Assembly: GCF_014306625.1 (NCBI RefSeq)
Contig: NZ_JACRYL010000003.1
Span: 203,119-267,118 of the forward strand
DNA length: 64,000 nucleotides
Reading direction: 5' to 3'
Origin: Pedobacter fastidiosus
GTDB lineage: Bacteria; Bacteroidota; Bacteroidia; Sphingobacteriales; Sphingobacteriaceae
The notes beneath the pieces are model-generated. The model made no database searches, was not told where the DNA came from, and was given only the letters and a program-made list of their open reading frames with translations. This document shows positions 1 through 46,426 of the stretch, one piece after another; within the stretch, counting starts at the first letter, position 1, and each line of letters opens with the position of its first letter. A program made the translations under genes and the position numbers.

Positions 1-756
1 CTTTTACTCTTGAGCCTTGGTTCGTGTCTTCACGAACCACTAAACCAATTTCGTTTCGTGGAGACACGAAACCGAGGCGATCTCTATCTCTGGTATTAAT
101 AGCAAATAAAAACCACACCAAATCCGTGTTTATCTGTGTGCATCTGTGGTTGAAACCTTTTACTCTTGAGCCTTGGCTCGTGTCTCCACAACCACTAAAC
201 CAATTTCGTTTCGTGGAGACACGAAACGAAAACCACACCAAATCCGCGTTTATCTATGTGCATCTGTGGTTGAAACCTTTTACTCTTGAGCCATGGTTCG
301 TGTCTCCACGAACCACTAAACCAATTTCGTTTCGTGGAGACACGAAACCGAGGCCATCTCTATCTCTGGTATTAGTAGCAAATAAAAATCACACCAAATC
401 CGTGTTTATCTGTGTGCATCTGTGGTTGAAACTTTTTACTCTTGAGCCTTGGCTCGTGTCTCCACGAACCACTAAACCAATTTCGTTTCGTGGAGACACG
501 AAACCGAGGCCATCTCTATCTCTGGTATTAGTAGCAAATAAAAATCACACCAAATCCGTGTTTATCTGTGTGCGTCTGTGGTCAAAAACTTTTTACTCTC
601 TGAGCTTTGGTTCGTGTCTCCACGAATCACTAAACCAATTTCGTTTCGTGGAGACACGAAACCGAGGCGATCTCTATCTCTGGTATTAGTAGCAAATAAA
701 AACCACACCAAATCCGTGTTTATCTGTGTGCATCTGTGGTTGAAACCTTTTACTCT
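1..756. repeat. Tandem array of five ~155-bp intergenic repeat units
   Basis: Five head-to-tail units start at about 1, 157, 277, 432 and 589, and a sixth is cut off at 747-756. Four units are 155-158 bp. The second is 120 bp because it lacks the stretch between the hairpin and the ACCACACCAAATCCG part. Each unit carries a hairpin with arms TTCGTGTCTCCACGAA and TTCGTGGAGACACGAA, at 21-70, 177-225, 297-346, 453-502 and 611-660. This is followed by a spacer and by a segment ending in GTGCATCTGTGGTTGAAAC. The array ends 3 bp from the dctA stop codon and continues off the left edge. An open frame runs through most of it, but it is a by-product of the repetition. The units abut without unique spacers, so this is not a CRISPR array. 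Confidence 0.9.
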
Positions 757-43117: not shown

Positions 43118-43417
43118 TTAAACTTCTCTCTTTCGATTGGGGTTTAAATAAGTATTAAAAACATGGAGAATGTAAATTAATCCCTTTTCGGGTATCAATT
43201 CGTAAACTATGACATATGGAAATTTTGGAACTACGTATTCTCTAAAAGTGCCAAGTTTAAGAGGAAAGGCTTCTGGATATTTTGAAATTGCTTGTATAGA
43301 ACTTTCGATTATATTTAGGAATCGCTCTCCCAAATTTGATTTTTGCTCTTCGTACCAATCGTAAGATTGTTGTATTTCTGCTTCTACCGAAGACGAGAAT
43401 ATAATAATGTAATTCAA
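43118..43417 (-). CDS. RelE/ParE-family toxin
   Basis: The 99-residue protein has the ParE pattern: SVEAEIQQSYDWYEEQKSNLG near the start, NIIESSIQAISKYPEAFP in the middle, and the strand pair YVVPKFPYVIVYEL before a final HVFNTYLNP. ParE toxins usually inhibit gyrase and RelE toxins cut mRNA. The sequence is nearer to ParE. The start appears to be TTG at 43417, since no in-frame ATG is near. It lies 10 bp downstream of the antitoxin gene, the normal antitoxin-toxin order. Confidence 0.85.
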   Translation of the reverse strand: MNYIIIFSSSVEAEIQQSYDWYEEQKSNLGERFLNIIESSIQAISKYPEAFPLKLGTFREYVVPKFPYVIVYELIPEKGLIYILHVFNTYLNPNRKREV

Positions 43418-43427
43418 TTTAAAGAGA

Positions 43428-43658
43428 TTACTTATTCAAGAGTTTATTCTTAATATCTGTAAAAGAAAGTCCATTATCAACTCCACTTTTTAAATTCTCA
43501 GAACGATTATTTAATTTATTGATTACTTCTTGATCTGCCCACCAAGAGTAAGTTTTTTCTGTTAAATCAACAGAGTAATCCAATCCCATATTGTCTAAAA
43601 AATCAATTATAGCTTTCTCTGATTTTGAATCATCAATATTGATTGTTAAGGTTCTCAT
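43428..43658 (-). CDS. Antitoxin of the ParE-type module
   Basis: The 76-residue product begins MRTLTINIDDSKSEKAIIDFL, a beta strand plus helix often found in small Bacteroidota antitoxins. It ends in a Lys/Asn-rich, probably disordered toxin-binding tail (NGLSFTDIKNKLLNK). An ATG at 43697 would add 13 residues, but it lies in a palindrome that looks like the operator, so the ATG at 43658 is preferred. It precedes the toxin gene by 10 bp. Such antitoxins usually repress their own promoter. Confidence 0.8.
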   Translation of the reverse strand: MRTLTINIDDSKSEKAIIDFLDNMGLDYSVDLTEKTYSWWADQEVINKLNNRSENLKSGVDNGLSFTDIKNKLLNK

Positions 43659-43688
43659 ACTCAAATTTACCTTTTTATTTTGAAACAT

Positions 43689-43707
43689 TAAATTCAATTT
43701 GAATTTA
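43689..43707. promoter_or_regulatory. Perfect palindrome, candidate operator of the toxin-antitoxin module
   Basis: TAAATTCAA and TTGAATTTA are perfect 9-bp arms around a central T. The site lies 30 bp upstream of the antitoxin ATG and 53 bp before the response-regulator ATG, in their shared divergent gap. A partial copy (AATTCAATTTAAA) overlaps the toxin start at 43411-43423. Position and symmetry suit autoregulation by the antitoxin. It could also affect the response-regulator gene. Confidence 0.55.
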
Positions 43708-43759: not shown

Positions 43760-45097
43760 ATGAACGGGATTGTCCTCATCATTGATGATGAAAAGAAAAT
43801 TTGCAGTTTACTTTCAAGAATTATAGAACTCGAAGGTTTTAAAACTTTACAAGCCAATACAGGCAAAGAAGGCATTAAACTACTAAAAACTAACGACGTA
43901 AGCTTGGTGATTAGCGATGTAAAATTACCGGATGTTAATGGCGTTGCACTTGTTAAGGACATTAAAGCCATTAAGCCTTTTGTAGAAATTATTAATTTAA
44001 CCGCATACGGGACAATTGCTGATGGCGTTTTGGCTATTAAAAACGGGGCTTTCGATTACCTTGTAAAAGGCGATGACAACGATAAAATAATTCCTCTGCT
44101 TTACAAGGCAATGGACAAATCAAATCTCCAAAAGCGGGTTTTTGATCTCGAAAATAAAATCACCAAAAAACATAGTTTCAGTACCATCATTGGTCAATCC
44201 AAAGCTTTAAAAGAAGCAATAGATTTAGCAAAAAAAGTAAGCCAAACCGATACAACAGTTTTACTTTTGGGCGAAACAGGTACAGGAAAAGAAGTTTTTG
44301 CCCAATCCATCCATTACGAAAGTCCGAGGGCATTAAAACCATTTGTTGCCTTAAATTGTAGCGGATTTAGTCCTGAATTACTGGAAAGCGAATTATTTGG
44401 CTATAAAGCAGGTGCCTTTACTGGCGCAAATAAAGATAAAAAAGGACTATTGGAAGAAGCCAATGGCGGAACTTTGTTTTTGGATGAAATTGGAGAAATG
44501 AACCTCGATCTGCAAGCTAAGCTATTGCGGGTTTTAGAAAATCAAAGCTTTATTAAAGTTGGCGATACCTTAACTCAACAAGTAAATGTTCGCATTCTTG
44601 CAGCCACCAATAAAGATTTAAAGGCAGATGCGGCTTCAGGTAAATTCCGTTCCGATTTATATTATCGTTTATCAGTGTTTACGATTATTCTTCCTCCGTT
44701 GAGAGAGAGAAAAAGTGATATTCCTGCGTTGGCCAAACATTATTTAACTGAATTTTCGGATAAGGTAAACCGAAAAGAATTGAATTTGGATGATAAAATT
44801 TTATCCATTTTTACAGAACACAGTTGGAAAGGAAATATCCGCGAGTTGAAAAATGTAATAGAACGTTTGGTTATTCTTTCTGATGGTGAAACCTTGAATA
44901 CTTCGGCTTTGCCACCAGAGTTTTTTGAATTTACCCCACTAGCGAACGATTATAATTTACAGCAAATAGAAAAACAGCACATTCAAAAAGTGTTGATTCA
45001 TACCAAGGGCAACAAAACCGAAACCTCAAGATTATTGGGCATTGGTTTAACCACGCTTTATAGAAAAATTGAGGAATACGGGATTAAGGAAGTTTAA
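43760..45097 (+). CDS. NtrC-family sigma-54-dependent response regulator
   Basis: The 445-residue protein has three parts. A receiver domain (about 1-120) contains the acidic pair in IIDDE and the phosphorylation site Asp53 in [11 protein letters not shown]. An AAA+ domain (about 145-370) has Walker A GETGTGKE at 171-178, the sigma-54-contacting GAFTGA loop at 218-223, and Walker [13 protein letters not shown] Fis-type HTH (about 405-443) contains [22 protein letters not shown]. It therefore activates promoters read by sigma-54 RNA polymerase. No kinase is adjacent. The nearest are the split KdpD and the histidine kinase downstream of kdpC, so this is the best candidate for the KdpE role. That pairing is inferred from position. 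Confidence 0.92.
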
Positions 45098-45116: not shown

Positions 45117-46157
45117 TTAAAAATAATTTTTTACTGCGAAAGTATATTGTTCAATGAAAATTCTTTTAAACACACTGATGTTATTTAGCTCATAAAAAAC
45201 CAACATTGCCTCTTTATATGTAATCGAATCGATGGTTCGAAATGAAATGGGGCAATATCCAGAAGCGAATAGCACACCATTACTTACAATCCTTGCAGTT
45301 CTTTTATTTCCATCAGCAAATGCCTGAATATAGGAAAGTAGGACCAACGTTAAAAGCGCTTTTTCTAAAACATTTTTTTTCGCATTTATAACGGAACACA
45401 TCTCACGTAGTGCTTCTCTAATTTGATATTCATTATCAAGCGGAGTATAATTAGTGCCCGTAATACCAACTCTTCCTCTACGTATATTCCTATCAACATC
45501 TAAATCCTTAATAAGCAAACTGTGAATGTCTTCAATTCCTCTTATCGTAATCGGAACAATATAATCTGAATGCTCAATGATAAAATTTAATGCCTCTTTA
45601 TGATTTAAAAGCATAATTGCATCTTGTTTAGGTTTACCTGGAGCCGTTTCTTTTTCTTTTAACAATAATTCAGTTTCCAGAAGAGAGTATGTATTTCCTT
45701 CAATTTGCGAAGATTTCCAGCTTAAATCTATCGCTAGCCTTTCCATCTCTTTATTATATTCTGTTTTAGAAAGCTTGGATATTTTCTCCTTGAAAAAATC
45801 ATGTAATTCTTCTAAAGATTCTTGTTCTTTTACCGTAAAAAGCTGGGATTCACTCAGCACTTCTGTGATCAGATTGAAATTGAAATTATTTTTGATTTCC
45901 CTTTCATCCTGTTCCTTTTTAAAATATTCTCGCAAATCTATCTCTTTCAATAATTGAAAAGAAGGACTCAATTCATATTTAGTGGCTCTAGCTTTACCTT
46001 TAGATAGTATAATCCCATCAGCTTCAAGATTGGACAATATTCTTTTAACTGTAGCAAGGCTTTGAGAATCCGTTAAAGCCTGAAATATCTCATTTGATGA
46101 AAGTGTACCTCGACTTTCTAAAATTGAAATTATTTCGTTTTTATTTTCGGTTTTCAT
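45117..46157 (-). CDS. Fic-domain protein with N-terminal winged helix; catalytic His replaced by Gln
   Basis: The 346-residue protein starts with a winged-helix DNA-binding domain (about 1-62: ILESRGTLSSNEIFQAL, SLATVKRILSNLEADGII). It continues with a class II Fic domain. The N-terminal inhibitory helix has the motif S149-xxx-E153-G154 within SSQIEGN. The Fic core at 278-289 reads QAFADGNKRTAR. In canonical HPFxDGNxRxxR enzymes the first residue is the catalytic His, and here it is Gln278, with Ala279 for Pro. Transfer of AMP by the usual mechanism is therefore doubtful. The phosphate-binding Asp282, Gly283, Asn284, Arg286 and Arg289 are kept, so nucleotide binding is plausible. Six copies of a short motif lie directly upstream, pointing to autoregulation. 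Confidence 0.88.
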   Translation of the reverse strand: MKTENKNEIISILESRGTLSSNEIFQALTDSQSLATVKRILSNLEADGIILSKGKARATKYELSPSFQLLKEIDLREYFKKEQDEREIKNNFNFNLITEVLSESQLFTVKEQESLEELHDFFKEKISKLSKTEYNKEMERLAIDLSWKSSQIEGNTYSLLETELLLKEKETAPGKPKQDAIMLLNHKEALNFIIEHSDYIVPITIRGIEDIHSLLIKDLDVDRNIRRGRVGITGTNYTPLDNEYQIREALREMCSVINAKKNVLEKALLTLVLLSYIQAFADGNKRTARIVSNGVLFASGYCPISFRTIDSITYKEAMLVFYELNNISVFKRIFIEQYTFAVKNYF

Positions 46158-46158
46158 T

Positions 46159-46295
46159 ATCAGCTCAATTGTAAATTAAATATAGCTTATTTTGAGCCAA
46201 TAAATTCACAAAAACTTAAATCAGCTCACTTTAATTAATAAATCAGCTCAAATTGAAAGTTTTTTGAGCCGATATTGAATAGTTATTGAGCTAAT
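46159..46295. promoter_or_regulatory. Operator-like array: six copies of ATCAGCTCAA in both orientations
   Basis: The 10-bp motif ATCAGCTCAA, or its reverse complement with at most two changes, occurs at 46159-46168 (forward), 46192-46201 (TTGAGCCAAT, reverse), 46220-46229 (ATCAGCTCAC, forward), 46242-46251 (forward), 46264-46273 (TTGAGCCGAT, reverse) and 46286-46295 (TTGAGCTAAT, reverse). The last four start exactly 22 bp apart, two turns of B-DNA, so they lie on one face of the helix. The first copy abuts the Fic start codon. This is the arrangement expected for cooperative binding of a dimeric winged-helix protein. The Fic/winged-helix product is the obvious candidate. Confidence 0.75.
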
Positions 46296-46358
46296 AATAC
46301 TACTTATTTTCTAGTAGAAGAATTTCCAATAATTAATTAGTCCACCCAAATCGATAAA

Positions 46359-46381
46359 AACCCTTCCAAAACGGAAGGGTT
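46359..46381. terminator. Bidirectional terminator between the Fic operator array and kdp
   Basis: AACCCTTCC (46359-46367) and GGAAGGGTT (46373-46381) pair perfectly over five bases. T-runs occur on both strands. No annotated gene ends here, so it either insulates kdp from rightward transcription starting in the Fic control region or ends a short untranslated RNA. Confidence 0.8.
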
Positions 46382-46426
46382 TTTTTATGTTTAAAAATTT
46401 TAAAATTGAAATATTTAGAATCAAAC

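What the first reader, a model, noticed from the sequence alone, without database searches (positions are those of the whole stretch)
46159..46295. Six-copy operator array with 22-bp phasing in front of a winged-helix Fic gene
Six copies of ATCAGCTCAA or its complement lie upstream of the Fic gene. Starts at 46220, 46242, 46264 and 46286 are exactly 22 bp apart, and the first two are spaced 33 and 28 bp. Copies are in both orientations. Two helical turns between sites is what cooperative binding by a dimer would need. The Fic protein itself has a winged helix, so a self-regulating switch that senses a nucleotide or protein state through the Fic domain is possible. The array also faces the kdp operon.
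Basis: partly seen in the sequence, partly recalled or inferred. Interest (0 to 1): 0.8.

Follow-up and report, generated by a model that had tools for sequence, protein, structure and literature searches.

The report
Conserved self-operator of a Fic-type regulator
The repeated DNA in front of this Fic gene is a real binding-site array that travels with the gene across many bacteria and matches the gene's own DNA-reading helix, so the protein most likely switches off its own production; its enzyme part lacks the usual catalytic residue and may act as a sensor.

Summary
Four of the six half-sites (46224-46291) form a dyad-symmetric quartet, GCTCA/GCTCA/TGAGC/TGAGC, with 22 bp between like-oriented sites. 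It occurs once in the genome even with 3 mismatches. Searched by DNA alone it occurs in 33 of 395 genomes of the class (reversed control 0). In 24 it lies just 5' of an orthologue (one has an internal stop), in 4 of a fragmentary copy, in 2 of a wHTH relic; 2 show none, 1 is cut by a contig end. The 14 gene-bearing genomes without it have looser GCTCA arrays (6) or other half-sites (8); 12 of 14 beat shuffles. The half-site follows residue 35 of the recognition helix: I/L/V/P with ATCA 10 of 10, others never, 61 of 61, over about 4 changes on the tree.

Best reading: dedicated autoregulatory (repressor) operator of this wHTH-Fic protein. Control of kdp is unsupported. The Fic catalytic His is Gln in 69 of 71 members, so the domain may be a sensor. 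Fic-HTH autorepression (CccR) and a His-to-Gln Fic clade are in print; the quartet and specificity code appear new.

The parts
45117..46157 (-). wHTH-Fic gene (346 aa): N-terminal winged helix (recognition helix residues 34-46), Fic domain, inhibitory motif SSQIEGN (149-155), Fic motif QAFADGNKR (278-286; Gln in place of the catalytic His)
   Evidence: ORF; Pfam Fic 1.8e-12 and sub-threshold Penicillinase_R; AlphaFold2 model mean pLDDT 92.6; alignment to FICD places Q278 on its catalytic His
46220..46229 (+). half-site 3 (outer half-site of the quartet, on the side of the Fic gene)
46242..46251 (+). half-site 4 (inner)
46264..46273 (-). half-site 5 (inner)
46286..46295 (-). half-site 6 (outer half-site, on the kdp side)
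46224..46291 (.). 68-bp dyad-symmetric operator quartet (GCTCA N17 GCTCA N14 TGAGC N17 TGAGC)
   Evidence: only quartet in the whole genome with up to 3 mismatches; same layout at orthologues
46159..46168 (+). half-site 1, adjoining the Fic start codon
46192..46201 (-). half-site 2, convergent partner of half-site 1
46177..46184 (-). candidate -7 box TATATTTA (one base off TAnnTTTG) between half-sites 1 and 2; inference
   Evidence: read; TAnnTTTG is enriched inside the arrays of orthologues; no exact box in the window's own upstream
46356..46384 (+). terminator-like hairpin between the array and the kdp operon
   Evidence: 1 found, 0.2 expected in shuffles

Best explanation
The array is the dedicated operator of the Fic protein itself. 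The N-terminal winged helix binds the half-sites (NTCA core in most members, base N read by residue 35 at the start of the recognition helix). Several protomers bind the dyad-symmetric quartet on one face of the DNA, two turns apart, across the core promoter, and repress the protein's own gene. The Fic domain, which keeps its inhibitory helix and the rest of its motif but has Gln for the catalytic His, most likely gates this binding in response to a small ligand or partner rather than AMPylating a target. Shown here: the array, its conservation, one locus per genome, its place over the promoter, the co-variation with residue 35, the Gln. Inferred: binding, repression (rather than activation), cooperativity, ligand gating.
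For: Quartet unique in the genome. DNA-only search: 33 of 395 genomes hold it, reversed control 0. Protein search of the same 395: 38 genomes have the gene, one copy each. Both: 24, and in all 24 the coordinates put the quartet 5' of the gene, 15-67 bp from the start of the protein match. The other 9 quartet genomes: 4 with fragmentary copies, 2 with wHTH relics, 2 with none seen, 1 whose contig ends 71 bp beyond the quartet (G147). The 14 gene-bearing genomes without the strict quartet: looser GCTCA arrays in 6, other half-sites in 8 (by inspection); a motif-free quartet score is at p 0.01 or less in 12 of 14. Over 71 non-redundant upstreams 109 of 129 same-orientation neighbours are exactly 22 bp apart, and outside the ATCA class 45 of 74 convergent ones exactly 19. 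Half-site versus residue 35: 10/0/0/61, Fisher 2e-12, not corrected for relatedness; on the quick tree the two labels coincide exactly with 4 changes, at least 3 forced; sister pair L048 (I35, ATCGATCA) and L134 (A35, ATCGCTCA), support 99. TAnnTTTG in 66% of upstreams against 9% in shuffles, at preferred places within the array. No recurrent neighbour. A second wHTH-Fic(Gln) family has its own arrays (by eye). Precedent: CccR, a Fic-HTH protein, represses its own promoter (PMC9755527, passages).
Against: No binding or expression data; the sign of regulation is inferred from the overlap with the promoter. 7 of 54 upstreams did not reach 5% against shuffles (L027, L030, L042, L057, L062, L063, L064), though L027, L030, L042 and L057 carry GCTCA copies; many of the 54 are close relatives. 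L119 and L144 did not beat shuffles. In 2 of 33 quartet genomes (G197, G253) no gene or relic was seen. The window lacks an exact -7 box. The covariation rests on 3-4 independent changes; half-site classes were set by word counts plus my reading (L149 was tied and set by hand; L062 and L069 have few copies and no clean quartet).
Confidence: 0.85

Rival explanations
1. The array is the operator of another transcription factor, and the Fic gene is merely its target.
For: Not excluded by position alone; repeated sites over a promoter fit any regulator.
Against: One array locus per genome, at this gene in 24 of 33 and at its remains in 6 more, and no shared neighbour regulator; the half-site changes with the Fic protein's own recognition helix.
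Confidence: 0.07
2. The protein is autoregulated as above but is a class II Fic toxin or defence enzyme (SoFic- or CccR-like) that still modifies a target despite the Gln. This rivals only the sensor part of the best explanation.
For: PADLOC SoFic profile matches at 3e-18; members sit in putative prophage contigs beside late genes; the 2015 survey argued that the Gln clade need not be dead (PMC4454073, one passage); patchy distribution and decaying copies.
Against: Catalytic His is Gln in 69 of 71 members; no antitoxin or partner gene recurs.
Confidence: 0.3
3. The array also controls the kdp operon.
For: The array lies between the divergent genes.
Against: Terminator-like hairpin in between; 414 bp to kdpA; no kdp or other gene recurs next to orthologues.
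Confidence: 0.03
4. The copies are a chance or repeat-driven feature (mobile repeat, RNA hairpin).
For: The sequence is AT-rich and the copies are short.
Against: Exact quartet once in the genome, reversed control 0 in 395 genomes, linked to the gene across genera and, with other half-sites, in contigs of other phyla.
Confidence: 0.01

Closest known systems
CccR of Yersinia pseudotuberculosis (PMC9755527; passages seen)
   Same: Fic domain plus DNA-binding domain in one protein; inhibitory motif SARIEG; represses its own promoter by binding inverted repeats near -35 and -10.
   Different: HTH is C-terminal; His present (H192PF) and AMPylates FtsZ; one pair of 10-bp repeats 26 bp apart, not a 4-site 22-bp array; secreted effector.
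Fic clade D2 with His replaced by Gln, motif Qx[FY]x[DE][GV]NKR (PMC4454073; one passage seen)
   Same: The motif fits both families seen here (QxFxDGNKR and QPFDDVNKR).
   Different: The passage calls its members usually single-domain and mentions no DNA-binding domain or operator; the members aligned here carry an N-terminal wHTH.
CbFic2 of Coxiella burnetii (PMC10628234; passages seen)
   Same: Class II Fic with a winged-type HTH; DNA binding linked to dimer formation.
   Different: Motif HPFDDGNGR with His, C-terminal HTH, tested with random DNA; no operator defined in the passages seen.
SoFic / Sofic (PDB 3eqx, 3zcn; PMC12249575 passages)
   Same: Class II Fic fold; dimer; PADLOC SoFic profile matches.
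   Different: Catalytic His present; additional domain at the C-terminus; AMPylation-dependent toxicity.
Human FICD (top structural match)
   Same: Fic core and inhibitory Glu align; 248 columns, TM-score about 0.6.
   Different: Catalytic His; no DNA-binding domain (recalled).
BlaI/MecI penicillinase repressors (Pfam PF03965)
   Same: Weak profile match of the N-terminal 60 residues (2.5e-4, just below cut-off); direct repression by a wHTH dimer (recalled).
   Different: No Fic domain; TACA/TGTA operators (both recalled).

Membership tests
Fic-HTH autorepressor (CccR kind) | Fic domain and DNA-binding domain in one chain | tested here: met
   Pfam Fic, weak wHTH profile; model with an N-terminal three-helix-plus-strands unit and a Fic fold
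Fic-HTH autorepressor (CccR kind) | Inverted repeats over the gene's own promoter | tested here: met
Fic-HTH autorepressor (CccR kind) | Direct binding and repression shown | not testable with these tools
   needs EMSA, footprint, reporter
Class II Fic AMPylase | Catalytic motif HxFx(D/E)GN(G/K)R with His | tested here: not met
   Gln in 69 of 71 members, 1 gap, 1 Asp in a gene with an internal stop; rest of the motif kept
Class II Fic AMPylase | N-terminal inhibitory motif (S/T)xxxE(G/N) | tested here: met
   SSQIEGN, E153 in 70 of 71
Fic clade D2 (His to Gln) | Motif Qx[FY]x[DE][GV]NKR | tested here: met
   QxFxDGNKR, QPFDDVNKR against the motif quoted
Penicillinase repressor (BlaI/MecI) | Score above Pfam cut-off | tested here: not met
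   21.8 bits against 22.6
SoFic defence system | Catalytic His | tested here: not met
   His absent; profile match 3e-18
SoFic defence system | Antiphage activity | not testable with these tools
   needs phage challenge
FicTA toxin-antitoxin module | Conserved adjacent antitoxin gene | tested here: not met
   largest neighbour cluster 5 of 89 loci, near-identical rumen genomes; only frames of 70 codons or more compared

The most novel reading that the evidence does not exclude
A whole clade of Fic proteins has given up AMPylation (His to Gln, rest of the motif and inhibitory helix kept) and turned into one-gene, one-operator transcriptional switches, in which a ligand bound in the former active site decides whether the wHTH holds the four-site array; protein and operator drift together as an insulated pair, with residue 35 setting the operator, and travel between phyla and on prophages.
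Probability: 0.4. Interest if true: 0.78.

Novelty: new variant of a known kind. Interest (0 to 1): 0.62.

Why it matters
It gives an unstudied group of Fic proteins a testable job, turns the unexplained His-to-Gln clade into a concrete question (is the Fic pocket a sensor?), and offers a natural series of operator and recognition-helix pairs for learning how winged helices change specificity. The operator also marks places where the gene has been lost.

Tried and rejected
kdp control: rejected. A regulon: no second quartet in the window's genome with up to 3 mismatches; 32 of the 33 quartet genomes have one site, G149 has two at the same locus. Looser sites in the genome: 17 convergent pairs RGCTCA N6-28 TGAGCY against 4 in the reversed control; that control contains CG and is a poor one, and apart from the array no pair has the 14-bp gap of the quartet, so I did not pursue them, but weak single-dyad targets are not excluded. 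Direct pairs with 22-bp phase: 2 places besides the array (C1:159123, C11:186364), not examined. Generic 5-mer counting was too weak to prove the arrays and was replaced by the quartet score. NCBIfam gave no family for the Fic protein. The viral structure library gave only general Fic matches among its significant hits. Plasmid records: 1 with a relative; phage records: 2 with distant ones. A careful tree did not finish; the quick tree was used. In one search the column printed is residue 36; the informative residue is 35, used from then on, and the group counts (L149 mislabelled) are replaced. The first neighbour clustering included frames overlapping the Fic gene and was repeated without them. 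Rows left out: of the loci, L009 (the window itself), L015-L018 (distant), L025, L051, L060, L067, L068, L070 (no upstream or truncated) and L073 (no family frame found); from 89 rows, near-copies of 90% or more and rows under 280 residues, leaving 71. The 29 DNA-found loci L086-L114 were used only for adjacency, not for the 71.

Full report
What is there. The window lies in a 5.27-Mb genome held without a name; the nearest named relatives of the protein are from Mucilaginibacter, Sphingobacterium and Pedobacter. The Fic gene runs on the minus strand, 45117-46157, 346 residues. In the frame of the core GCTCA, sites 3 to 6 form a dyad-symmetric quartet, window 46224-46291: GCTCA N17 GCTCA N14 TGAGC N17 TGAGC. 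Sites 1 and 2 make a further convergent pair next to the start codon. Searching the whole genome for the quartet with up to 3 mismatches returns this one place and nothing else.

Conservation. The search for related loci returned 55 loci encoding relatives; one search printed upstream sequence for 48 of them. A quartet score free of any assumed motif beat all of 60 shuffles in 41 of 54 upstreams (window included, many of them close relatives) and reached 5% in 47 of 54; the 7 that did not are L027, L030, L042, L057, L062, L063 and L064, of which L027, L030, L042 and L057 do carry GCTCA copies. Over 71 non-redundant upstreams, 109 of 129 neighbouring same-orientation half-sites are exactly 22 bp apart, and outside the ATCA class 45 of 74 convergent neighbours are exactly 19 bp apart, start to start; 12 more are at 41, that is 19 + 22 with one inner copy missing (half-site word chosen per locus by me). 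11 of 71 upstreams have seven or more copies, for example two full quartets in tandem at L014, L020 and L050. Of the 9 convergent pairs in the ATCA class, four (L064, L065, L066, L147) are at 8-9 instead of 19, about one helical turn shorter, and one (L058) is at 19.

Two-way test. DNA-only search of 395 genomes of the class for the quartet with at most 1 mismatch: 33 positive, reversed control 0. Protein search of the same 395: 38 positive at 1e-70, one copy each. Both: 24, and in all 24 the quartet lies 5' of the gene, 15-67 bp from the start of the protein match, by the coordinates; one of the 24 (G164) has an internal stop. Quartet without such a gene: 9. Of these, L089, L090, L109 and L114 (G286, G285, G328, G406) show fragmentary copies; L087 and L091 (G257, G063) show only an N-terminal wHTH remnant, read by eye and, for L091, at E 0.019; L098 and L101 (G197, G253) show nothing; in G147 the contig ends 71 bp beyond the quartet, so nothing can be said (L150). 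Gene without the strict quartet: 14. Their upstreams (by inspection) hold GCTCA arrays with other spacing or missing copies (L119, L127, L137, L141, L142, L143) or arrays of CGGTCA (L139, L144), CGGACA (L140), CGCTCA with altered copies (L145), CTGCT (L146) and CCTATCA (L147, L148, L149). Against 100 shuffles a motif-free quartet score is at p 0.01 or less in 12 of the 14; L119 (0.12) and L144 (0.38) fail.

Specificity code. Among 71 members under 90% identity, residue 35 is I, L, V or P in exactly the 10 whose half-site has A before TCA, and is A, S, T, K or F in the 61 others. Fisher p is 2e-12, but relatedness inflates it: on the quick tree both labels change 4 times together, at least 3 forced by well supported branches. 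The half-site classes come from word counts and my reading; L149 was tied and set by hand, and L062 and L069 have few copies. The cleanest case is the sister pair L048 (I35; ATCGATCA) and L134 (A35; ATCGCTCA), SH-aLRT 99. Residue 35 is the second residue of helix 34-46, the third helix of the wHTH in the model (mean pLDDT 92.6). In a putative phage contig (L163) K38 is G and the sites read TGAGGAG, 22 bp apart (by eye), so residue 38 may read the neighbouring base; that is a lead only. For a bulky aliphatic residue opposite an A:T pair, contact with the thymine methyl is a natural explanation, from general knowledge.

Promoter. TAnnTTTG, the -7 element of Bacteroidota promoters (the consensus is recalled; one search gave only a listing of papers), occurs within 160 bp in 66% of the 71 upstreams against 9% in mononucleotide shuffles, and in the 35 of 49 upstreams with at least two TGAGC that also hold the box it sits at a few preferred distances from them. 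The array therefore covers the core promoter, which favours repression. The window's own upstream has only a near match, TATATTTA, between sites 1 and 2.

The protein. The Fic motif reads QAFADGNKR. Aligned to human FICD, Q278 takes the place of the catalytic His. Q278 is Gln in 69 of 71 members (1 gap, in truncated L014; 1 Asp in L138, which has an internal stop), while F280, D282, G283, N284, K285, R286 and E153 of the inhibitory motif are each kept in 70. A second family at 32-35% identity, about 460 residues, has YLQPFDDVNKR and SSRLEGN and its own upstream arrays of TGTCGCRA, in most loci extended to TGTCGCRATACT, and complement at the 10 full-length loci looked at (L015-L017, L152-L158; L157 degenerate; by eye, no statistic). 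A 2015 survey had noted a Fic clade with Gln for His, motif Qx[FY]x[DE][GV]NKR, which fits both families, and argued that it need not be catalytically dead (PMC4454073, one passage).

Context. With frames overlapping the gene left out, the largest neighbour cluster covers 5 of 89 loci, all near-identical rumen Bacteroidales. Of 59 genomes in the relatives search, the window's own included, 9 had matches, 3 of them of the second family; the gene is accessory. Of 7 IMG/VR loci found, four (L160, L161, L162, L164) carry 7-9 GCTCA copies in the 230 bp before the gene; flanking genes match tape-measure or head-protease families in three of them (L161, L162, L164), while the large frame upstream in L160 matched nothing. 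So it also rides in putative prophages. One plasmid of Bacteroides finegoldii holds a relative.

Prior work. CccR (PMC9755527, passages) shows that a Fic-HTH protein can repress its own promoter through inverted repeats; the Fido paper (PMC2686095, passages) had suggested that HTH domains fused to Fic may regulate fic expression. I found no report of this operator or of its link to the Gln-type family in the searches, which cover open-licence full texts only, and of whose hits I opened five papers, passages only.

Verdict. Ordinary in kind (autoregulation by a fused DNA-binding domain), unusual in degree: a four-site, two-turn-phased operator found at one locus per genome, a visible protein-DNA code, and an enzyme domain that looks converted. 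Not shown: binding, sign of regulation, ligand, and any enzymatic activity.

Noticed in passing
L015-L017, L152-L158 (upstream of the gene): A second wHTH-Fic family (YLQPFDDVNKR) has its own self-arrays of TGTCGCRA(TACT), directly before the gene.
   Followed up: partly
L160, L161, L162, L164: Family members sit in putative prophage contigs, in three of them beside tape-measure or head-protease genes, with 7-9 operator copies.
   Followed up: partly
L087, L091, L098, L101: Quartets with only a wHTH relic (L087, L091) or no gene (L098, L101): possible operator scars of gene loss.
   Followed up: partly
L101:718-2777: The gene-less quartet lies between a nucleotidyltransferase/HepT pair and another Fic protein with an HTH-like frame before it (Pfam).
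   Followed up: partly
L064-L066, L147: Inner half-site distance 8-9 bp instead of 19, about one helical turn less, with the 22-bp direct spacing kept.
   Followed up: partly
window 43118-43417 (-) and 43428-43697 (-): A ParE-type toxin gene (Pfam 1.5e-8) preceded by a small frame without Pfam match, likely its antitoxin.
   Followed up: partly
window 11-448 (-): GGCTCA recurs at 11, 167, 287 and 443 (steps 156, 120, 156), perhaps a repeated coding unit at the window edge.
   Followed up: no
window 43760-45097 (+): A sigma-54 type response regulator gene ends convergently against the Fic gene.
   Followed up: no
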